A stretch of DNA of 64,000 nucleotides from Petrotoga mobilis SJ95 (GTDB lineage Bacteria > Thermotogota > Thermotogae > Petrotogales > Petrotogaceae), in NCBI RefSeq assembly GCF_000018605.1, contig NC_010003.1, positions 2,022,501-2,086,500 of the forward strand, in the 5' to 3' direction. This document shows, piece after piece, positions 51,344 through 62,798 of the stretch (position 1 is its first letter; each line of letters starts with the position of its first letter). The notes beneath the pieces are model-generated. The model did not search any database. It saw nothing but the letters and a program-made list of their open reading frames with translations, and had not been told where the DNA came from. The position numbers and the translations under genes are program-made.

Positions 51344-51619
51344 TTAAATTATGAAGTCATCAGGTTCACCTTTTTCCACACCATAAGTTTCTTTTATAAA
51401 AATTTTTCGAGATTCGAAAATGTACCAAGTAATGCTATCTTCATCTTTTTTTGTAATTTTTCTTATCTGTTGTTTTAAGATCTCATATTTTGCTTTTGTT
51501 ATTTCTCCTTCCAGCAAGGAATTTTGTACCCAGTTCAGGTATTGTCTCGCTTTTTTTAAAACTTTTGCTACTCTTTTTTCATTAACATCGTAGGCCATTA
51601 TTACGTACGTTTTTACCAC
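51344..51619 (-). CDS. cas2: CRISPR-associated endoribonuclease-fold Cas2
   Basis: The 91-residue protein with Cas1 forms the spacer integration complex. It has the ferredoxin-like start VIMAYDVNEKRVAKVLKKAR, with the conserved Asp in YDV, and LNWVQNSLLEGEIT as in other Cas2 proteins. It overlaps cas1 by 7 bases and is the last gene of the cas operon. Confidence 0.95.
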   Translation of the reverse strand: MVKTYVIMAYDVNEKRVAKVLKKARQYLNWVQNSLLEGEITKAKYEILKQQIRKITKKDEDSITWYIFESRKIFIKETYGVEKGEPDDFII

Positions 51620-52614
51620 CTCATTGTAAAAGGAACGTATTCTTTTTCTTCTATCAGATGTTTTAAAATCTTATAAGCCTCATGTTTTATCAATGTTCTG
51701 TAGGTAATATTTCTTTTTAATTTTTTATGTTTTAAAGTTGTACTTAAATGCTCTTCATAATTTTTTATAAAATTTTTTTGGCCTTCTTCGTTCAAGTGAA
51801 TGCCGCCTTGAACTTTTTTAAAATGGTTTTCATTAATTATTTTTTTATTCACAAGGTTAAAAATAGTTCTATCTACCACAATGGGCTTAAATATTTCAGC
51901 TATATCAAGGTTCAAAGAAAATTTTCTAAAGTTAGTTGAATGAAGATAGCCAATTCTAGGATCTAATGGTGTTTGATAAATTTGCGTTAAAACTGTAGAG
52001 TACATTAAAGAATTTCCAAAACTGATAAGTGTGTTCAGGTAATTTGTAGGGGGCCTTTTTTCTCTGACAACCATTTTGAAATCTTCATTTGAGATTATAT
52101 TGTTATCAATAAAATTATAATAAATCTCTCTATAATTTCCCTCTTGTGCCATTAATTCGTTAATAGAACCAATCTGGGGAATATTCTGAATAAATTCTTC
52201 CATTTTTTGCGAATACCGTTTTATTGTTAAATCGTTTTTCCTTTCATAATATTGCACAATCTTTAAGATGTTTTGCATAGCTCCTTCTACAAACTTTTTT
52301 GCTAAAACTAATCTTTTTTCTGAGGAGATATAGTGCTCTACTTGTTTAACTATTGTTATTCCATTTGTATTATGCTCATATGGATAAAAACTTCCCACAT
52401 AAAAACCATAATGGTTGAAAAAATGGAGTGGTAAGTTATTGGCTGACAAGAATTCAAGAAGTCGTTTGTTTATGTTTATTTCTCCAAATATCTTTATTTC
52501 TGAAATGTTTTCTATCGGGAAGTACTTTGTTTTTTCATCAGATTCATTTTTAAAGGCTAGTGTGTTTCCTTTTCTAGATAACGTTCCGCTTTGAAATATA
52601 TAGATAGGTTTCAA
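51613..52614 (-). CDS. cas1: CRISPR integrase Cas1
   Basis: The 333-residue protein starts at the TTG at 52614 (MKPIYIFQSGTLSRKGNTL), with GAGAGGA upstream. A longer frame into cas4 exists but adds 13 residues that are only the cas4 tail in another frame. The metal-binding residues are seen as Glu in AQEGNYREIYYNFI, His in GYLHSTNFRKFSL and Asp in NLDIAEIFKP. The type I-B form is expected by context. It catalyses spacer insertion with Cas2. Confidence 0.95.
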   Translation of the reverse strand: MKPIYIFQSGTLSRKGNTLAFKNESDEKTKYFPIENISEIKIFGEININKRLLEFLSANNLPLHFFNHYGFYVGSFYPYEHNTNGITIVKQVEHYISSEKRLVLAKKFVEGAMQNILKIVQYYERKNDLTIKRYSQKMEEFIQNIPQIGSINELMAQEGNYREIYYNFIDNNIISNEDFKMVVREKRPPTNYLNTLISFGNSLMYSTVLTQIYQTPLDPRIGYLHSTNFRKFSLNLDIAEIFKPIVVDRTIFNLVNKKIINENHFKKVQGGIHLNEEGQKNFIKNYEEHLSTTLKHKKLKRNITYRTLIKHEAYKILKHLIEEKEYVPFTMRW

Positions 52615-52615
52615 T

Positions 52616-53128
52616 TTATTCCTCTCCCGCCCAACATAATTCTGCAAAGCCACATTTTGAACACACTCCTATCCATTTTGGTGGAGATGGAATAGGCGAT
52701 TCAATTAATTCATTGAGTTTAAGAAGTGTATCTTGTATTTCTTTTTTGGCTTCCTCATCGAACACAATGGGAATTCTCTTTTTTTCTTTTGGCAATAGAA
52801 TTTCCCCCTTTGCTTGAATACCCATATCCTCCAATAATTTTAAATAATATAACAACTGGATTTTGGCTCCTTTGAAAGATTTCGAAGATTTTTTGATTTC
52901 TCCAACTATGGTACACTTATTATCATTCCAAATTAAATCAATTACAGCTCCTGGAAGCTTTATTTCTTTTTCTCCTTTCCCTTCATAAGAATTTTTGTGT
53001 AAAAACCTTCCTAGTTCTATGTAGGGGTTATCTTGTTCAGGAGTGAATCTTCTTAAAACAAACCAAGCTTCTCTTGGGCATATTGAATAGGCTAAAACTG
53101 AATATCCTGTAATGATATTATCATCCAT
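52616..53128 (-). CDS. cas4: CRISPR-associated exonuclease Cas4
   Basis: The 170-residue RecB-family nuclease takes part in trimming prespacers and choosing the PAM. The N-terminal Cys is in SICPREAWFVL, the nuclease core in VIDLIWNDNKCTIVGEIKKSSK, and three further Cys in CSKCGFAELCW complete a [4Fe-4S] site. It overlaps cas3 by 8 bases and ends one base before the cas1 start. Confidence 0.94.
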   Translation of the reverse strand: MDDNIITGYSVLAYSICPREAWFVLRRFTPEQDNPYIELGRFLHKNSYEGKGEKEIKLPGAVIDLIWNDNKCTIVGEIKKSSKSFKGAKIQLLYYLKLLEDMGIQAKGEILLPKEKKRIPIVFDEEAKKEIQDTLLKLNELIESPIPSPPKWIGVCSKCGFAELCWAGEE

Positions 53129-55316
53129 GAAAATCCTCTTTCAATTCATATGGAATAAACCCTACTTCTTCAGAATAGATTTCCCCAATGCCTAATTGGG
53201 TAATCAACCAAATTCCATTTCCCTTATACTCAAGCTTTTTGTCATCCTCTAGAAATACTTCGTTACAGTAGTTTTCCCATTCTTCCAGTTCTTTGTGAGG
53301 AACATTTATAGAATAATTTTGAATTTCTTTCCATAGTTGTTTTTTTCTTTCGTAATTTTCTAAACTATGTTCCAAACTTTCAATTTCATATAATTTGTTT
53401 GAGACTGTTCCATCCGAATCTACAAACACCACATCCTCGTATAAATGTTCTTTTATTAGAGGTTTATAATTACTCCAATTCCCTTCTTTTATCTCATACC
53501 AAGGACCTTTTTGGTATTTACTCACTGACAATGCAGTGTAATATTTATCTAGTAGTTCTTGAACTTCGTTTTCTGAAAATTTATTTTTGTTGGAAAAAAT
53601 TTCTTTTGTCTTATTCAGCGATATGCTATCGTACACATAAGAAGCATATGATCTTTCATTCTCACTGTCATCATCTACTATTTCAGCAACCATTACTGTG
53701 CCAAGTTTATTTAGCATTCTTCTATTACATCTTCCAGCAGCTTGCACGATACTATCAAAGGGGGATAAATCTTTAAAAACGTAATCAAAGTCTAAGTCTA
53801 CTCCAGCTTCTACTACCTGGGTAGATATGAGATTTCTTGGCAAGTTTTTATTTTCCAACTGTTTGATCTGTTTAATTCTTTCTAACCTTTCTTTAGGAAT
53901 TACCCAAGTAGAAAGAAAGAAAAGGTTACTTTTCAAATGTTCTCGGAGTAAGATAAAAGCTTTTAACGCTTCTTTTCTTGTGTTAAGAATAAGTAGAGAA
54001 GAGTTATCAGTTCTATCAGCTGTAAATTGTTTAATATCAGAAAGCTTTATTTTTTCATTAACTATGTTATAACAGTGTCTATTTTTTGGGAAAGAAGATT
54101 TAGGAGCTAACTCTTTACCTTCTGCTATTTTAGGTTGTGTAGCGGTCATTAAAATAAAATAAGTTCCCATCTTTTTTGAAAGAAAAGACATTGTTTCTCC
54201 AAATCCTTGCCAATATTCAGGGGGAATCGACTGAGGTTCATCCAAAATAACTACCGCATCTTTTAACCTGTGGAAACTCATAGAATCGTTGGCATTAGGA
54301 GAATAAAGCACTTCCCAAAACTTTGCAAGGGTTGTAACAATGAGTGGCTCTTTGAAGTATCTAAAAGAAAGTATAAACCTTTCTAAATTATCTAAATCTT
54401 CTTTTTCCTTTGATGCACTTACCAAATGATGGTCTTCCTGTACTTTGTCGTATATTTTCTTTGCAACTTCAGAATTTTGATCAACAATACTTATGAACGG
54501 TAATACATAAATAATTGTTTTAAGAGAAAGTTTATTTGCTAACTTCATCGATGCTTGCAATCCAGTGAGTGTTTTTCCAGCCCCAGTTGGGAGCGTTATG
54601 GTATAGATACCTGGTTCTGAAATTGTATCAACGTTTGATAATGTACTTTCTCTTATTTTGTTTTTCCAATCGCTTAAATGGTTCTTTGGAAGGGATTCAA
54701 GAAATTTGTCGAACCTATCTTGTTGATAAGAAATTTTATCAAAATTGATCCTATCAACATTTAACGCATCTAGCCTATCAGATGTTATAAAAATTGAATT
54801 CTCGATTCTCGTATTAAACCATAATTCTTCAGCTTTAACCGTCTTGTTTAAAAGATACTGTGAATGCCAAGATTGAAATATTAATCTTTTCCATTCCTTT
54901 TCTGTTAGATATTCAATTTTGTTTAGATCAAGGAATTCTTCTAATGCTTTTATAACGTCTTGATAATTTAAATTTCTCCAAAAAGACATTATATCTTCAA
55001 AATTTAGTTGATATGAATGATGTCTTCTAACAATTTCGGCTTGGAAAACATCCTTTGTAAGCATAAATGTTAAATAAGAAGAAGGTTCAGAATGAGGATA
55101 TTTTCCTTTTTTTGTCTTTAAATATTGTTGAAATTTAACATGAGATTTAGCTACATCATGAGTTAAGCAGATAGGTTTTAATGGATCAACTAAATCATTG
55201 TACCCATGAAAATTTGATATCTCTTTGGATTTTTCGAAGACTCCTTCTAAATGATCTTTAAGCAGTTTATCCGGATGGCTTTCTTGACCATTCAGGAAGC
55301 CAAACAATTTCATCAT
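53121..55316 (-). CDS. cas3: CRISPR helicase-nuclease Cas3
   Basis: Cas3 unwinds and degrades target DNA after Cascade binding. The protein is about 731 residues. The N-terminal HD nuclease has LKDHLEGVF and LTHDVAKSHVKFQQYL (about 50-65). The SF2 helicase has Walker A LPTGAGKT (about 247-254), motif II ILDEPQ, SATQ-like TATQP, VVEAGVDLDFD and motif VI QAAGRCNRR. The start is either ATG 55316 or 55313; a TTG at 55322 is less likely. It overlaps cas5 by 50 bases. Confidence 0.95.
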   Translation of the reverse strand: MMKLFGFLNGQESHPDKLLKDHLEGVFEKSKEISNFHGYNDLVDPLKPICLTHDVAKSHVKFQQYLKTKKGKYPHSEPSSYLTFMLTKDVFQAEIVRRHHSYQLNFEDIMSFWRNLNYQDVIKALEEFLDLNKIEYLTEKEWKRLIFQSWHSQYLLNKTVKAEELWFNTRIENSIFITSDRLDALNVDRINFDKISYQQDRFDKFLESLPKNHLSDWKNKIRESTLSNVDTISEPGIYTITLPTGAGKTLTGLQASMKLANKLSLKTIIYVLPFISIVDQNSEVAKKIYDKVQEDHHLVSASKEKEDLDNLERFILSFRYFKEPLIVTTLAKFWEVLYSPNANDSMSFHRLKDAVVILDEPQSIPPEYWQGFGETMSFLSKKMGTYFILMTATQPKIAEGKELAPKSSFPKNRHCYNIVNEKIKLSDIKQFTADRTDNSSLLILNTRKEALKAFILLREHLKSNLFFLSTWVIPKERLERIKQIKQLENKNLPRNLISTQVVEAGVDLDFDYVFKDLSPFDSIVQAAGRCNRRMLNKLGTVMVAEIVDDDSENERSYASYVYDSISLNKTKEIFSNKNKFSENEVQELLDKYYTALSVSKYQKGPWYEIKEGNWSNYKPLIKEHLYEDVVFVDSDGTVSNKLYEIESLEHSLENYERKKQLWKEIQNYSINVPHKELEEWENYCNEVFLEDDKKLEYKGNGIWLITQLGIGEIYSEEVGFIPYELKEDFHG

Positions 55317-55995
55317 TTCCAACCAAAACTCCCCCTATCTCTTCAGGATTATCAACAATAATCCCCGTATCGCTATTGACTGGATAAAAAACTGACAAGC
55401 TTTTGGTAAGTCCCCTTTCTTCATCCATCTGAAGAGGGACTATGTCTTTAAAGATTCCTTTGGTTTTTTTCAGATTAATTTTGGGTTTAATATCAGCTGG
55501 TATGATACTTTTAATATTTACCTCACCATCATTGATCTTCACTGGGTTGAAAGATCCTATGTAGTCAATATTAGCAAATGAATATGCTGTACCTAAATAT
55601 GGAGTAAAAACAAAATTACCTTGTTCAAGAAAAGGTTTTAATTTTTCTTCTATAGGACCTTCTACATAAATTCGATATTTTGGCCTTTTAACAAATTGAT
55701 GTTTTATAATATTGTGAATTCCCTTTTTTGGGTCTTTATAATTCCACAGGTTTATGCTAGTAGTGAACCATTTAATTGGAGATCTTATAGAGATGGAAAT
55801 TCTGTTTCCATACAATGCTTCCCAATAAGAAGCCAAATGAGCTTTATTTTCAGATTTGTTCTCTACGCCTATTATAGCTGCAATTAATCCTCCAACAGCC
55901 GTAGGTGGCGGAAAGGGATAGGATGCGGAAGAAGTGGTTGTATAGAATTTGCGAAACATAGCATACTCCCCTGTAATATCAAAAACAAGGGCCAT
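55267..55995 (-). CDS. cas5b: Cascade subunit Cas5 (type I-B)
   Basis: The 242-residue RAMP protein binds the 5' handle of the crRNA in Cascade. The start ALVFDITGEYAMFRKFYTTTSSASYPFPPPTAVGGLIAAIIG is split here by its motifs: GEYAMFRKF and YPFPPPTAVGGLIAAI are the Cas5 family signature. It lies 4 bases after cas7 and overlaps cas3. Confidence 0.93.
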   Translation of the reverse strand: MALVFDITGEYAMFRKFYTTTSSASYPFPPPTAVGGLIAAIIGVENKSENKAHLASYWEALYGNRISISIRSPIKWFTTSINLWNYKDPKKGIHNIIKHQFVKRPKYRIYVEGPIEEKLKPFLEQGNFVFTPYLGTAYSFANIDYIGSFNPVKINDGEVNIKSIIPADIKPKINLKKTKGIFKDIVPLQMDEERGLTKSLSVFYPVNSDTGIIVDNPEEIGGVLVGNDEIVWLPEWSRKPSG

Positions 55996-55999
55996 TGTA

Positions 56000-56908
56000 T
56001 CACCTCAATTCAATAGCTACTTTATCTTCTCCCAAAATACTCTTTAGATCATCAATATTCTTTACTTCCAAGTCAGGATCCTTGATAATTATTATCTTTT
56101 CTATATTATCTTTGAGTAAAGAAACCTTATCACATATTTCCTTCAAATTGAGAGCAATGTCTTGAATATTTCTGATTGCCAATTGTTCATCGTCATCTAA
56201 CAAAGAATTATCTTTTTTGGTTAATTTTATCCTTTCATCCAAAGACCCTATTAATCCATTGAAATCAGGTTTGTACCAAATTTCCATCAAAAAGCGGGAG
56301 CGATGTTCAGTTTTACTTCTTGTGATTAAATTGTTGGTTCCGTTCCAAGCAGCTTGTGTAAGTTTGTTGAAATCCTCATCTGTTGCTTGTGTCCTTTCAG
56401 ATGCATATTGATTTCCAATTGCATAGGTTCCAATCAATGCAAAAGGTACTATATATTCATTTCTTATAGTTCTCTGTTCTCCTCCTTCTTTAGTAACAAA
56501 CGCACCTGTCCCTTGTACAAATTCAACTTTTGTTTTATGTAAAGATCTTCCCCATTTAAATTGGACAGGTCCAGTCCATGCAAAACTTTCTTTACCCAAT
56601 GCGAAAGTTACACCGAAAAGCCTTGTATCGATACATTTCTTTAGAGTTTCGTCTCCATTTGTGGTAGACAATTTCGTTTTCAACTCTTCGAATCTTTCTT
56701 TTAAAGTCTTTGGTTCTCCATCAATGAAAACATCTTCTCCCATTCTCATTAATTCGTCTCTAATAGTTCTTTTAATCCTAACGTCAGATACCAAAACTTG
56801 CCCTGTTTCTTCATCGTATCTTGGATGATTTGCATTCAATGGATCACCGTTTGGATTCGCATCTTTTACAGAGTATACAAACAAAAGTTCTTTTCTACCG
56901 TTAAACAT
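56000..56908 (-). CDS. cas7b: Cascade backbone subunit Cas7 (Csh2 type)
   Basis: The 302-residue protein forms the filament along the crRNA. The start ELLFVYSVKDANPNGDPLNA, then HPRYDEETGQVLVSDVRIKR, is the Csh2/Cas7b signature. RTIRDEL follows. It defines the system as subtype I-B together with the cas8b gene. It overlaps the preceding gene by 8 bases. Confidence 0.95.
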   Translation of the reverse strand: MFNGRKELLFVYSVKDANPNGDPLNANHPRYDEETGQVLVSDVRIKRTIRDELMRMGEDVFIDGEPKTLKERFEELKTKLSTTNGDETLKKCIDTRLFGVTFALGKESFAWTGPVQFKWGRSLHKTKVEFVQGTGAFVTKEGGEQRTIRNEYIVPFALIGTYAIGNQYASERTQATDEDFNKLTQAAWNGTNNLITRSKTEHRSRFLMEIWYKPDFNGLIGSLDERIKLTKKDNSLLDDDEQLAIRNIQDIALNLKEICDKVSLLKDNIEKIIIIKDPDLEVKNIDDLKSILGEDKVAIELR

Positions 56909-57386
56909 CTTGGTCCTCCCCCTTGTCCGTTTTTTCTATTTCTAATTCTGCTACTTCTTTCTCTTTTGTGTAGTCTTTGTATATTTCCCAGAAATAATTT
57001 CTCCAGTTCATGAAACCTGTTACAAAAGCAAAATTTCCATCAACGCCTAAATCTTTTCCTTTAGAATTCATTAATAGTTCTTGAGAGTAACCAGCTAAAT
57101 CTTCAATAAGGAAAGAAGGCTCAATCTTGTACGCTTTTATCAGTTCTGGTATTCTTGCTAGATGTTTTTTAATATCTCTTAAACTTAATCTTCCAAAATT
57201 TAGCTGTTTGTACAACGGAGAATCTTGAATTTTTGCGTTTGAATAACCACTCTCGTCTTTTTCCCCTTTTGCTTGATTATAGGCTATAAAGCCCAAAACT
57301 ACTCCAGATAAAAGTGTTCCTTTTCCAAAATCACTCTGCAAAAACTTATCAGAAAACTTATCTAGGAATTCCAAATGTCTTTTCAT
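56901..57386 (-). CDS. Cas11-like small subunit / separate Cas8b C-terminal part
   Basis: The 161-residue mainly helical protein starts at ATG 57386, in an ATGA overlap with the cas8b stop, with GGAGG 7 bases upstream. It has GTLLSGVVLGFIAYNQAKGE, LSLRDIKKHLARIPELIKAY and NFAFVTGFMNWRNYFW, resembling the C-terminal helical part of long Cas8b/Csh1 proteins. In many I-B systems the small subunit Cas11 is made from an internal start in cas8b. Here it appears as its own gene. The role in Cascade is inferred from position and resemblance. Confidence 0.65.
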   Translation of the reverse strand: MKRHLEFLDKFSDKFLQSDFGKGTLLSGVVLGFIAYNQAKGEKDESGYSNAKIQDSPLYKQLNFGRLSLRDIKKHLARIPELIKAYKIEPSFLIEDLAGYSQELLMNSKGKDLGVDGNFAFVTGFMNWRNYFWEIYKDYTKEKEVAELEIEKTDKGEDQDV

Positions 57387-58861
57387 AACGAATACCTCCA
57401 AGATTTATTGTAGTTGTTCAAAAATTCAATCAACAACAAAAAGTCATTCAAAGTAAGATGAAAATAGTCATTTTGGACTTTGTCGTTCATCAATTTAGGA
57501 ATTCTTGCAACAAAATTTTGTTTTATAGTTTTAGTTTCAACCCTTTCTCCACTTAAAATTTTTCCAATAATTTCCATTGTCAGGGTTCTCATTACCTTTT
57601 CTTCACTGTCTTCTTTCAAAACTAAATGGCGAAGAGTTCGATATATGTGTTTTAAAGCAGCAGAAAGTTGGGTATCTTTCTTTTTCGCCAAGAGCTGCAC
57701 AGTCTCTTCCCAAATTTGGTGTAATTTTTGTATTCTTGTTAAAGGTACATCCTCGATCATTTGATGTATTACAAGTTGTGCTTGATTTTGTTCGAGAAAA
57801 AGAAAATGAAAAACAGCTGTATAAGGTTTATCTACATCATAATCAGGATCTGTGATATAATCCAAAAGATCTTTTTCTTTTGTATACTGATCACTCCAAA
57901 AATAATTCTTTAAATCATTGAAAGCATCATCCAGAATGTTTGTATCTGTTGTAAAGAACTCGGGTATTATCCAGATCTGGATATTATTTATAATGGATTG
58001 ATCTACAAAATTATAATCTATGTAAGTTTTGGCATTAGAGAAAGTCTTAAAGCAGTCTTTACAATATTTGTATACCTTGTTAGAAAAATTCTTATTTATG
58101 GCAGGAAGGAAATTCACTTTATCAAACGTAGCAAAAGGAAAAATCATATCGAAATTAAGTAAAATATCGCTTTCCTTACCACAATAATCACAAACTCCAC
58201 CTTTTTTTGAAACATTTTTCTTATTCAGTTCCTCGTTTAATTTCTTTAAAAAATATTGTTGGAACAGCTTAACTTCTCCAGGGTAAAGAAATTGTCCATC
58301 ATCTTCAATACCAAAAACAATTAAATACGAAGCCTTTGGATCACTGTAACACTCTAAGAACCGATCCACAAAATCATTATTAGATAAGTCATTGATTATT
58401 TTTTGAACAGAACCTTTTTCAAAAAATCCTAAATCTTCGAAATCTTGAATCATTTTTTCAATTTTGCTTATATACGATTTAGAACCATTTAAGAGAACCT
58501 CACGATTTTTTTCTCTTGTACTTTTTGGCTTTGATATTCTCAAAACAGGTGAGTATCGCCAGTCGGTATTACTGCCTGGAGGTTCTTTATACAAATACCT
58601 AAGTTTTTTGTATTGTTCATCTTTGCTATCTGCAAAAAAATCAGCTTCATCAATTTTTGAAACACCCTCAATTTTTAGAGGTATGATTGTATTTTCTTTT
58701 TCACTTTGCAATTTCAACGTACTGTAATTTGATACTTTTAAATAAATTCTTATTTCTTTTGATCCATCTGTTCTTACAGGTATGGCTAGATAATCTGTTA
58801 TTTCATCAGTTTTTGATGAAAATTCTTTTCCAATAGTGTAAACCGCTTCGATAAAACCCAT
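57383..58861 (-). CDS. cas8b: Cascade large subunit Cas8b (Csh1/TM1802-like)
   Basis: The 492-residue protein lies in the usual place of the large subunit between cas6 and cas7. It has a central zinc-finger-like CDYCGKESD and, about 50 residues later, YCKDCF. Other parts are divergent, as is normal for Cas8. It recognises the PAM in type I-B. The C-terminus NDFLLLIEFLNNYNKSW lacks the extended helical domain, which seems to be encoded by the next gene. Confidence 0.85.
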   Translation of the reverse strand: MGFIEAVYTIGKEFSSKTDEITDYLAIPVRTDGSKEIRIYLKVSNYSTLKLQSEKENTIIPLKIEGVSKIDEADFFADSKDEQYKKLRYLYKEPPGSNTDWRYSPVLRISKPKSTREKNREVLLNGSKSYISKIEKMIQDFEDLGFFEKGSVQKIINDLSNNDFVDRFLECYSDPKASYLIVFGIEDDGQFLYPGEVKLFQQYFLKKLNEELNKKNVSKKGGVCDYCGKESDILLNFDMIFPFATFDKVNFLPAINKNFSNKVYKYCKDCFKTFSNAKTYIDYNFVDQSIINNIQIWIIPEFFTTDTNILDDAFNDLKNYFWSDQYTKEKDLLDYITDPDYDVDKPYTAVFHFLFLEQNQAQLVIHQMIEDVPLTRIQKLHQIWEETVQLLAKKKDTQLSAALKHIYRTLRHLVLKEDSEEKVMRTLTMEIIGKILSGERVETKTIKQNFVARIPKLMNDKVQNDYFHLTLNDFLLLIEFLNNYNKSWRYSL

Positions 58862-58882: not shown

Positions 58883-59629
58883 TCATATAACTTCGACTAA
58901 CCCAAACCCTTGGGAGTTTTTTGCTCCAAAACCAGAATCGTAACCAATTTTCAACAAACTTGGATTCCCTTGAATTTCAAAAACTCCATGCCAACCTTTA
59001 ATAATAAAATTTTTATACTTTGTTATGATCATTTTAGAGCCTTTCTGATCAGCTTCTTTTATAACGAATTCATCATTACTTATTTTTTTTGAAAGATATG
59101 AATCGTAATAGGCAAGATATTTTTTTATTAAATTTTCCTTTATTAATTTTGAAAATTGATCTTCGCTGGGGGAAAAGTAAATAGTCTTTTTTGAAGAATT
59201 TTGTACAATCGTAGAATAAATAGTAATGGGGGATAAAGTCTTTACCTTTATTTTATCGCTTTTTATTTCCAAATCATCGTACTCTAACTTCTCTACATGA
59301 ATCTTTTGACCTAATAGTTCAAAATCATCTTTAAATAAAAGCGAGTCTGCACAATACTGAATTAAGTTCTTGTCGTGAGAGGAAATTTTCAAAGAAACAT
59401 TATCAGAAAACTCTATTGTTTTATCCTTTTGATTTAAGCTGAATTTTCCGCTTAGCCTTGAAAAAGAAAACAATTTGTACTTTCTTTTATTATAGCTAAA
59501 ACCCTCGTTATGAATGAAGTTTCTATATTCGGCATTATCTATTAAATCAAGAATGAAAGCTTGAATAATATGATTGTAATTTAATGGAAGTATTAAACTA
59601 TTTAAAGAAAATTGAACGTTTAATCTCAT
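58883..59629 (-). CDS. cas6: CRISPR RNA endonuclease Cas6
   Basis: The 248-residue RAMP enzyme cuts the repeat RNA. The start MRLNVQFSLNSLILPLNYNH contains the likely catalytic His20 in YNHIIQAFILDLI, and the C-terminal glycine-rich loop is GYDSGFGAKNSQGFGLVEV. It is the first gene of the cas operon, 21 bases before cas8b. Confidence 0.95.
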   Translation of the reverse strand: MRLNVQFSLNSLILPLNYNHIIQAFILDLIDNAEYRNFIHNEGFSYNKRKYKLFSFSRLSGKFSLNQKDKTIEFSDNVSLKISSHDKNLIQYCADSLLFKDDFELLGQKIHVEKLEYDDLEIKSDKIKVKTLSPITIYSTIVQNSSKKTIYFSPSEDQFSKLIKENLIKKYLAYYDSYLSKKISNDEFVIKEADQKGSKMIITKYKNFIIKGWHGVFEIQGNPSLLKIGYDSGFGAKNSQGFGLVEVI

Positions 59630-59709: not shown

Positions 59710-59725
59710 GAAGGTATAAAAAAAT

Positions 59726-59890
59726 GTCTGTCGACCTCCAATAAGGTAAAAATCCCAGGGGATCGACAGACAAGTGTTAAAAGTCACAATCCTTATATTA
59801 TGCATATTTGAGTTGATTTTTAACAATTTATCAAAATTTTGATTGACAATCGTAATTTTTTATGATATAGTATTTATAGGTATCTTATGC
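59726..59890 (+). promoter_or_regulatory. Leader of CRISPR array 2
   Basis: It is nearly identical to the leader at 47285. The hairpin arms GTCTGTCGA and TCGACAGAC are at 59726-59734 and 59763-59771. The promoter TTGACA (59843-59848), 17-base spacer, TATAGT (59866-59871) leads into the first repeat at 59891. Confidence 0.9.
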
Positions 59891-62798
59891 CTTTTTATCC
59901 TACCTATGAGGAATGGAAACGATGGAAAAGAAAGAAAGACATCAAGAACGTTTGACCCTTTTTATCCTACCTATGAGGAATGGAAACCTCATCCACATAG
60001 TAGATTATTTGTTATGGATTATGCTTTTTATCCTACCTATGAGGAATGGAAACTTTTTTTCATGATAAAATCATCTCCTTTTTTAGTAAAACTTTTTATC
60101 CTACCTATGAGGAATGGAAACGAAATAGTTACTATGGTGGACGTACTGAATTGATTGACTTTTTATCCTACCTATGAGGAATGGAAACCTTCATATTTGT
60201 CTCCGAATGAATCAAAAAACACTCTTTTTATCCTACCTATGAGGAATGGAAACAGGGCGAAAAGGAAATCATGAAACGTATTGGTGAATTCTTTTTATCC
60301 TACCTATGAGGAATGGAAACAAGCAAGAAAAGGCGATAAAACTTCTAAAATATTCTATCTTTTTATCCTACCTATGAGGAATGGAAACAACAATGAGGAT
60401 ATAGAATATTGTAGGCGTGATGTTGACTTTTTATCCTACCTATGAGGAATGGAAACGATAATTGTATCCCTTCGGTACGATAAAAGAATAACTTTTTATC
60501 CTACCTATGAGGAATGGAAACAATGAAGATGATAAAAGGATTTGGCATGGTGATAAAAGCCTTTTTATCCTACCTATGAGGAATGGAAACTTTTTTATAG
60601 AAAGTACACTGTACTTTCTAAGTCGCTTTTTATCCTACCTATGAGGAATGGAAACTCTAACAATTAACAACGAGCCAGCTCGAATGAAAATCTTTTTATC
60701 CTACCTATGAGGAATGGAAACTGTGCATTCTTGACACCTTGGAAGTTTTCAGTTATTTCTTTTTATCCTACCTATGAGGAATGGAAACTTCAATTGGATA
60801 CTTTCAAATATCTACGTGGAGGGGTGCTTTTTATCCTACCTATGAGGAATGGAAACCCCGTGCCGCTGACGTTGTATAACTTGAAAAAAGAATCTTTTTA
60901 TCCTACCTATGAGGAATGGAAACTGGGTTAAGAATGAGAGCACTTTAGAAGAGAGACCTGTCTTTTTATCCTACCTATGAGGAATGGAAACTTGTCTCAA
61001 TAGGTTCTTTTGGTTGAGTCTGTCCTGCTTTTTATCCTACCTATGAGGAATGGAAACCTTCCTGAAAAACCGTGTCGGTTTTTCCGTGTCGGTTTTTCTT
61101 TTTATCCTACCTATGAGGAATGGAAACTTGAGGAACCTAAAAAAGAGGAGGCAAATAATAAAACTTTTTATCCTACCTATGAGGAATGGAAACATAATAT
61201 AACTTCCATCACCATTTTCAATTATCTTTGCCACTTTTTATCCTACCTATGAGGAATGGAAACACCCGTCTCGCACGTCCGGCACTGTGATGCTGTATCC
61301 TTTTTATCCTACCTATGAGGAATGGAAACACTTGTATACAGAAACAGAAGCAGACATAAAAACACTTTTTATCCTACCTATGAGGAATGGAAACCGACAC
61401 CAATTAGATCCATAACAGTTACCTCCTTAAGCTTTTTATCCTACCTATGAGGAATGGAAACCAAGGCGTTTGTTTCGGCTCCGTGTTTGCGGCTCCGTGC
61501 CTTTTTATCCTACCTATGAGGAATGGAAACACCATGAATGAAACGCTTCTTTTGTCTTTCTTTGCTTCTCTTTTTATCCTACCTATGAGGAATGGAAACT
61601 CTAACTTCCTTCTTTCAACTTCTTTTTGTAACTTCTTTTTATCCTACCTATGAGGAATGGAAACCAAATACAGTATTCCCACAAGTAATAAGTAATAACA
61701 ACTTTTTATCCTACCTATGAGGAATGGAAACTCAATAATTTCACAATAATAATTTCTCAACAAATCATCCTTTTTATCCTACCTATGAGGAATGGAAACG
61801 TAGCTAAATTAGCAATTATAACTCCTTTTTCTTTTCTTTTTATCCTACCTATGAGGAATGGAAACACTTTATTCAACATATCAACATTATTTTCTTTCTC
61901 ACTTTTTATCCTACCTATGAGGAATGGAAACCTCGATTTCTTCTATGTACATTTTTTCCGACAACTCGCTTTTTATCCTACCTATGAGGAATGGAAACTT
62001 TAGATTTTTGTGTTGATATTTGTGTAGATATTTACTTTTTATCCTACCTATGAGGAATGGAAACTTATATCATCCTGTCTTCCTTCGTCTGTGATTTTCT
62101 CCCTTTTTATCCTACCTATGAGGAATGGAAACTTCTTATTTCTTTAACTATTTCTGGTTCTAATTGTTCACTTTTTATCCTACCTATGAGGAATGGAAAC
62201 CAAGAAATATCTCTTAGTTTTTTTTTTGAACCATATAGTAGCTTTTTATCCTACCTATGAGGAATGGAAACAAGTAAAAAAAAGAGATGATTTCTCACCT
62301 CTTTTTTCCTTTTTATCCTACCTATGAGGAATGGAAACGGTTCATTTAAACTAACAATCTTTGTATCTTCTTTTTCTTTTTATCCTACCTATGAGGAATG
62401 GAAACATATGAAAAGTAAAGTGAATACTGCTAAAACGCCCCCTTTTTATCCTACCTATGAGGAATGGAAACTCTAAATCTGTGAATACTTTTACTTTTCC
62501 TTGAAGCTTTTTATCCTACCTATAAGGAATGGAAACAGCCCCTGAGCTGAAGCTAACATACCCTCGGTGTACCCTTTTTATCCTACCTATAAGGAATGGA
62601 AACTTTCCTTCACATATTGGTCTACTTCACCATGTATCCCTTTTTATCCTACCTATAAGGAATGGAAACGCACTCTCCTCTAAAGCTCCTCTTTGAGCAG
62701 CTAATCTTTTTATCCTACCTATAAGGAATGGAAACGTATATACAGCATAACGCATTGCATCCATTGCATGGCTTTTTATCCTACCTATGAGGAATGGA
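59891..62798 (+). CRISPR. CRISPR array 2, 43 spacers
   Basis: There are 43 full 30-base repeats (start CTTTTTATCCTACC, end ATGAGGAATGGAAAC) and a broken 44th at 62772. Spacers are 35-41 bases, and the repeat-to-repeat distance is 65-71. Repeats 40-43 (62507, 62574, 62640, 62706) carry ATAAGG instead of ATGAGG. The 44th has ATGAGG, breaks after GGAATGGA and runs into purine-rich GGAATGGAGGG copies. The repeat type and the adjoining cas genes fit subtype I-B. Orientation is set by the leader and by decay at the 3' end. Confidence 0.99.

What the first reader, a model, noticed from the sequence alone, without database searches (positions are those of the whole stretch)
56901..58861. Cas8b split, with the small subunit as its own gene
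Seen: the large-subunit gene ends early and a 161-residue helical protein starts at an ATGA overlap with its own ribosome site. Known: in type I-B and some other subtypes Cas11 comes from an internal start in cas8. Inference: here the helical C-terminal part has become a separate gene, so only the split product is made and no fused form. This makes it a natural test for how Cas11 evolved.
Basis: partly seen in the sequence, partly recalled or inferred. Interest (0 to 1): 0.6.

Follow-up and report, generated by a model that had tools for sequence, protein, structure and literature searches.

The report
CRISPR Cas8b with separate Cas11 gene
This bacterium's CRISPR type I-B defence complex makes its small DNA-holding subunit from a separate gene, not from a hidden start inside the large-subunit gene, and the same split marks one lineage of relatives, so it shows how such a gene can arise.

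Summary
cas8b (57383-58861, minus, 492 aa) stops at an ATGA overlap with a 161-aa gene (56901-57386) that has its own GGAGGT site. The two products match the two ends of one Cas8b family, with no part doubled. It is not a sequencing error: all 22 strong matches to the small protein's profile are stand-alone genes, in Thermotogota, the phylum of Desulfallas and one further phylum; none is in frame with cas8b, and stop-to-start distances run from -32 to +22. On a Cas7+Cas5+Cas3 tree the 21 split loci kept form one clade (support 100/100) inside fused type I-B, so one fission is the simplest reading. In fused relatives a strong ribosome site and start sit at the matching place in 21 of 41 genes, against 7 of 308 control windows. 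The separate gene's start is therefore probably the old internal Cas11 start, set free when the frame broke upstream. The predicted fold best matches Cas11c and the Cas8c tail of type I-C. PADLOC already holds the family, labelled large-subunit Cas8b; passages of open papers that I read say type I-B has no separate cas11. The make-up of the complex is inferred, not shown.

The parts
57383..58861 (-). cas8b without its C-terminal domain, 492 aa (large subunit)
   Evidence: ORF; Pfam Cas_TM1802 E 4.3e-47, profile positions 2-466 of 602
56901..57386 (-). stand-alone cas11b, 161 aa, equal to the Cas8b C-terminal domain
   Evidence: ORF; Pfam Cas_TM1802 positions 490-599, E 1.2e-10; PADLOC PDLC01518 E 4.5e-57; helical fold like Cas11c
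57394..57399 (-). GGAGGT ribosome site of cas11b, 7 bases before its ATG
   Evidence: sequence, scan
57383..57386 (-). ATGA overlap: start of cas11b and stop of cas8b
   Evidence: sequence; same -4 distance in 11 of 22 split loci
58883..59629 (-). cas6
   Evidence: TIGR01877, 145.6 bits, cut-off 58.65
56000..56908 (-). cas7 (Csh2, type I-B)
   Evidence: TIGR02590, 252.6 bits, cut-off 171.55
55267..55995 (-). cas5 (type I-B)
   Evidence: TIGR02592, 122.1 bits, cut-off 97
53121..55322 (-). cas3 (HD nuclease and helicase)
   Evidence: TIGR01587 and TIGR01596 above cut-off
52616..53128 (-). cas4
   Evidence: TIGR00372, 79.8 bits, cut-off 65
51613..52653 (-). cas1 (type I-B)
   Evidence: TIGR03641, 428.7 bits, cut-off 304.1
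51344..51619 (-). cas2
   Evidence: TIGR01573, 35.1 bits, cut-off 24.5
59890..62795 (+). CRISPR array, 30-base repeat ending GGAATGGAAAC, copies every 65-70 bases; limits approximate
   Evidence: repeat finder

Best explanation
A complete type I-B CRISPR-Cas operon in which the ancestral cas8b has been cut once, at the border of its C-terminal helical domain, into a tail-less cas8b and a dedicated cas11b. In the ancestor the domain was made twice: as the tail of Cas8b and as free Cas11 from an internal start. A frame break just upstream of that internal start turned it into an ordinary gene start, and the fused product was lost. The lineage has kept this arrangement and is now found in at least three phyla. 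Shown here: gene anatomy, homology, single clade, matching internal starts in fused relatives, purifying selection. Inferred: in Cascade, tail-less Cas8b sits at the PAM end with Cas5, and free Cas11b fills every belly position, including the one that the Cas8b tail holds in other I-B systems (three Cas11b plus the tail in Synechocystis), to hold the non-target strand.
For: The two halves fit the two ends of one family, and the small profile finds nothing in the large one. 22 of 22 junctions are out of frame, at nine different distances from -32 to +22, and 18 of 22 starts have a ribosome site of 5 or more matching bases. The 21 split rows form one clade, bootstrap 100 / SH-aLRT 100, inside I-B with I-C as root. 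Ribosome site (6 or more bases) plus start at the domain border: 21 of 41 fused I-B genes against 7 of 308 control windows (Fisher 8e-17); as positive control, I-C genes 33 of 36 against 2 of 215. Fold: of the top 13 entries, 12 are I-C Cas11c chains or Cas8c tails, Z 5.3-7.4. dN/dS 0.066. Belly of Synechocystis I-B: PMC11096372, passages read.
Against: No protein or complex data. Structure Z values up to 7.4 are in a range the tool calls common for helical bundles, and Foldseek alone gave no E below 0.28. 20 of 41 fused genes lack a strong (6-base) site at the border. Two of 22 split starts (L106, L124) have no exact site of 4 or more bases at an allowed distance. The direction of the change depends on I-C and a deeper I-B group as outgroups, and a simple model (LG+G4) was used. 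The Cas8b model is poor (pLDDT 62.5).
Confidence: 0.87

Rival explanations
1. Sequencing or assembly frameshift in a normal fused cas8b.
For: The two ORFs together have about the length of a fused Cas8b.
Against: The same break is in 22 loci of separate assemblies, with an independent same-genus copy at the same -4 distance and other loci at eight other distances and in both other frames; own ribosome sites; low dN/dS.
Confidence: 0.01
2. Programmed frameshifting at the overlap still makes some fused Cas8b, so both forms exist.
For: Frames differ by one base at the ATGA overlap, where frameshifting could act.
Against: The frame relation is not conserved: distances -32, -26, -11, -4, -1, +1, +2, +4, +22, with both possible shifted frames present and four loci without any overlap. 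No search for slippery sites was made beyond this.
Confidence: 0.05
3. Separate cas11 arose by duplication of the tail (a route proposed in PMC10212523), followed by loss of the tail from Cas8b.
For: The end state is the same; a tandem duplicate with later loss cannot be fully told apart from fission by sequence alone.
Against: None of the 20 split loci with a complete large protein keeps a tail (478-514 aa) and no remnant is seen by profile comparison. The gene start matches the internal start of fused relatives, so duplication is not needed.
Confidence: 0.08
4. The separate gene is the ancestral state and the fused I-B lineages joined it later.
For: Types I-A and I-E have a separate cas11; the split clade is sister to most fused I-B, so the direction rests on the outgroups.
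Against: I-C (outgroup) and the deeper I-B group are fused, with internal starts in I-C, so separate-first needs more changes.
Confidence: 0.06

Closest known systems
Type I-B systems with fused Cas8b (Thermotoga maritima I-B1, PMC13199841; Synechocystis I-B, PMC11096372; Haloferax, PMC11899642)
   Same: Same kind of effector genes; the small protein equals the Cas8b tail; Cas11 matters for those complexes (passages).
   Different: There Cas11 is read (or thought to be read) from a start inside cas8b and Cas8b keeps the tail; here the tail exists only as its own gene.
Type I-C Cascade (Cas8c with Cas11c from an internal start)
   Same: Predicted fold closest to Cas11c and the Cas8c tail; I-C genes show the internal ribosome site at the same border.
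   Different: Cas8c is fused; Cas7, Cas5 and Cas3 fall on another branch.
Type I-A and I-E (separate csa5 / cse2; names recalled)
   Same: Works like them: large and small subunit come from separate genes (PMC11899642 passage).
   Different: No sequence tie was tested; here the small gene is plainly the Cas8b tail.
PADLOC profile PDLC01518 (Cas8b, CAS-I-B; effector_LS)
   Same: 134-position profile matches residues 4-143 of the small protein, E 4.5e-57: the sequence family was already catalogued.
   Different: Catalogued as a large subunit, not as a small subunit.

Membership tests
CRISPR-Cas type I-B | Cas7 of the Csh2 family | tested here: met
   TIGR02590 252.6 bits over cut-off 171.55
CRISPR-Cas type I-B | Cas5 of type I-B | tested here: met
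   TIGR02592 122.1 over 97
CRISPR-Cas type I-B | Cas8b as large subunit (Pfam Cas_TM1802) | tested here: met
   161.7 and 41.3 bits for the two halves, gathering score 25.1
NCBIfam TIGR02556 / TIGR02591 (whole Cas8b) | score over the curated cut-off for one full-length protein | tested here: not met
   91.2 of 156.95 and 42.3 of 104.05 for the large half, lower for the small half; also not met in L109, but met by L130, the fused system of the same genome
Type I-B Cas11b as published | small subunit translated in frame from inside cas8b | tested here: not met
   separate gene in another frame, 22 of 22 loci
Cas11 small subunits | small all-helical protein with the Cas11 bundle | tested here: met
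   pLDDT 85.3, all helix; best matches Cas11c and Cas8c tails, Z 5.3-7.4 over 102-121 residues, against 6.3 for one unrelated chain and 3.8 or less for the rest; Z of this size alone can be chance for helical bundles
Cas11 small subunits | present in several copies in Cascade and holds the non-target strand | not testable with these tools
   needs purification

The most novel reading that the evidence does not exclude
A distinct, widely spread variant of type I-B whose Cascade has a tail-less Cas8b and a belly made only of free Cas11b (four copies expected where Synechocystis has three plus the tail), and which records a complete case of a hidden internal gene becoming a normal gene by breakage of its host frame. 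Two genomes (G046, G055) carry both the split and a fused I-B system and are a natural side-by-side test.
Probability: 0.65. Interest if true: 0.65.

Novelty: new variant of a known kind. Interest (0 to 1): 0.55.

Why it matters
[quoted passage not shown] This clade gives a case, placed on a tree, of separation by fission at the internal start. It also offers I-B systems in which Cas8b and Cas11 are naturally independent, which otherwise has to be engineered when I-B is used in foreign hosts, and it lets the role of the covalent tail be tested without mutants.

Tried and rejected
Sequence search of solved structures with the small-protein profile gave only chance matches (best E 0.035, ribosomal L14e) and with the large one none. 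No match on plasmids or in viral contigs. The structure of tail-less Cas8b came out poor (pLDDT 62.5); among its best rows are Cas8c residues up to 451-484 (Z 6.1-7.6 at rmsd 8.5-14.5 A), which I do not lean on.

G082 looked like a second split but the two pieces lie at contig ends, so it is an assembly break. L140, L206 and L207 have broken or partial cas8b and were left out of both the split and the fused counts as ambiguous, as were L128 (G082) and L208 (cut by its contig end). L111 (G051) is a split locus cut by its contig end and was not used in junction counts. L125 lacked cas5 and cas3 and fell out of the tree, so 21 of 22 split loci are on it.

The internal-start test takes the best start within 25 codons either side of the border; L199 and L205 had a plainly misplaced border and count as misses; L200 had no hit and L202 no assigned cas8b, so 41 of 43 fused loci were scored. 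The I-C control has 36 rows but two genomes appear twice (L146/L209, L150/L210), and its border was set at 125 residues from the end, not by a profile. In one search the deep I-B protein L200 was compared with a profile that contains it, so that match proves nothing; L208 and L207 (not in the profile) reach the tail region, L202 only part of it.

Full report
What is there. The minus strand carries cas6 (58883-59629), cas8b (57383-58861, 492 aa), a 161-aa gene (56901-57386), cas7, cas5, cas3, cas4, cas1 and cas2, next to an array of 30-base repeats at about 59890-62795. The genome is 2,169,548 bases in one contig; that size is the one I recall for Petrotoga mobilis SJ95, which no call confirmed. 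The 161-aa gene starts in the stop codon of cas8b (ATGA) and has GGAGGT seven bases upstream.

What the two proteins are. In Pfam Cas_TM1802 the large protein covers positions 2-466 and the small one 490-599 of 602, both over the gathering score. Profile against profile, 20 large proteins of split loci align to positions 7-471 and 22 small ones to 488-604 of the 622 positions of a profile of 42 fused Cas8b (probabilities 100 and 97.9), while small against large gives nothing. So the pair is one Cas8b cut in two with no part doubled. PADLOC has a profile of just the small family, named Cas8b, large subunit (E 4.5e-57). Neither half reaches NCBIfam's Cas8b cut-offs.

How general it is. The domain profile PDLC01518, which does not look at gene context, gave 22 matches of 144 bits or more in searches of 103 genomes of the window's phylum, 113 of the class and 398 of the phylum of a Desulfallas relative, and 9 of a third phylum (some genomes are shared between the draws). 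All 22 are in stand-alone frames of 136-206 codons; a 23rd is cut by a contig end (L009). Matches in fused genes scored 40.5 bits or less. Named examples are Desulfallas sp. Bu1-1 and three Thermotogota bins. G046 and G055 hold a split and a fused system each. That the window's phylum is Thermotogota follows from these three bins, which are genomes of the same class.

Not an error. Stop-to-start distances in the 22 loci are -4 (11 loci), -26 (4), and one each of -32, -11, -1, +1, +2, +4 and +22; the small frame is never that of cas8b; 20 of 22 starts have a ribosome site of at least 4, 18 of at least 5 and 16 of at least 6 exact bases. Large proteins not cut by a contig end are 478-514 aa (20 of 22 loci). 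Against the same-genus relative the small gene has dN/dS 0.066, the four others 0.10-0.17.

One origin. A tree of Cas7+Cas5+Cas3 (75 loci, 1266 columns; 21 split, 43 fused I-B, 7 I-C, 4 ambiguous) puts all 21 split loci in one clade, bootstrap 100 and SH-aLRT 100, beside most fused I-B, with a deeper fused I-B group and I-C outside. A tree of the shared Cas8b part also separates 21 split from 42 fused rows by one branch. One change from fused to split explains this, given I-C as outgroup. Caveats: uneven letter make-up in many rows, a simple model, and only a sample of I-B.

Where the start came from. In fused relatives I placed the domain border with a profile of the split small proteins and looked for the best start codon with a ribosome site within 25 codons. 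A site of 6 or more exact bases was found in 21 of 41 genes, against 7 of 308 equal windows elsewhere in the same genes; with 5 or more, 31 of 41 against 40 of 308 (Fisher 8e-17 and 2e-16; related genes are not independent, so these values are guides only). Of the 21, 19 lie within ten codons of the place that matches the start of the split gene. The same kind of test on I-C Cas8c, where an internal Cas11 start is established (PMC7684278, passages), found 33 of 36 against 2 of 215. Hence the split gene's start is most simply the old internal start.

Fold. AlphaFold2 on six sequences gives an all-helical protein, pLDDT 85.3. In the PDB, Foldseek's best eight rows are type I-C Cascade chains, at weak E-values of 0.28 to 1.5. 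On re-alignment 12 of the top 13 entries are Cas11c or the Cas8c tail (residues about 453-608), Z 5.3-7.4, with one unrelated chain at 6.3 and all others at 3.8 or less. Alone this would be modest; it agrees with the sequence homology to the Cas8b tail.

Function. In Synechocystis I-B the Cas8b tail and three Cas11b line the belly and support the non-target strand (PMC11096372, passages). In T. maritima I-B, Cas8b does not purify with the complex without Cas11 (PMC13199841, passages). By analogy the split protein should fill all belly sites and hold Cas8b without a covalent link. This last step is inference.

Literature. Seven searches of the open library bear on this. In the passages read from nine papers, none describes a separate cas11 in type I-B; PMC13199841 lists I-B among subtypes without one, and PMC11899642 says the Haloferax system lacks one. 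The 2025 classification was searched by terms only. I recall that McBride 2020 and Makarova 2020 treat the subject; neither was read here, so earlier notice cannot be excluded.

Noticed in passing
59725-59772: Strong hairpin (10-bp perfect outer stem) between cas6 and the array, -21.3 kcal/mol against a shuffled mean of -9.0; could be a terminator, an operator or a leader element.
   Followed up: partly
62574-62735: Three repeats at the far end of the array read ATAAGG where the others read ATGAGG, as expected for the old end of an array read on the + strand.
   Followed up: no
L107 and L131 (G046); L109 and L130 (G055): Two genomes hold both a split and a fused type I-B system.
   Followed up: partly
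L140 (G089), L206 (G315), L207 (G264): cas8b outside the split group broken elsewhere or cut short (329+216 aa, 182 aa, 341+372 aa): decay, sequencing error or further splits, not resolved.
   Followed up: no
57383-58861 and relatives: Split Cas8b falls under the NCBIfam cut-offs for Cas8b, so automatic annotation may miss these effector genes.
   Followed up: partly
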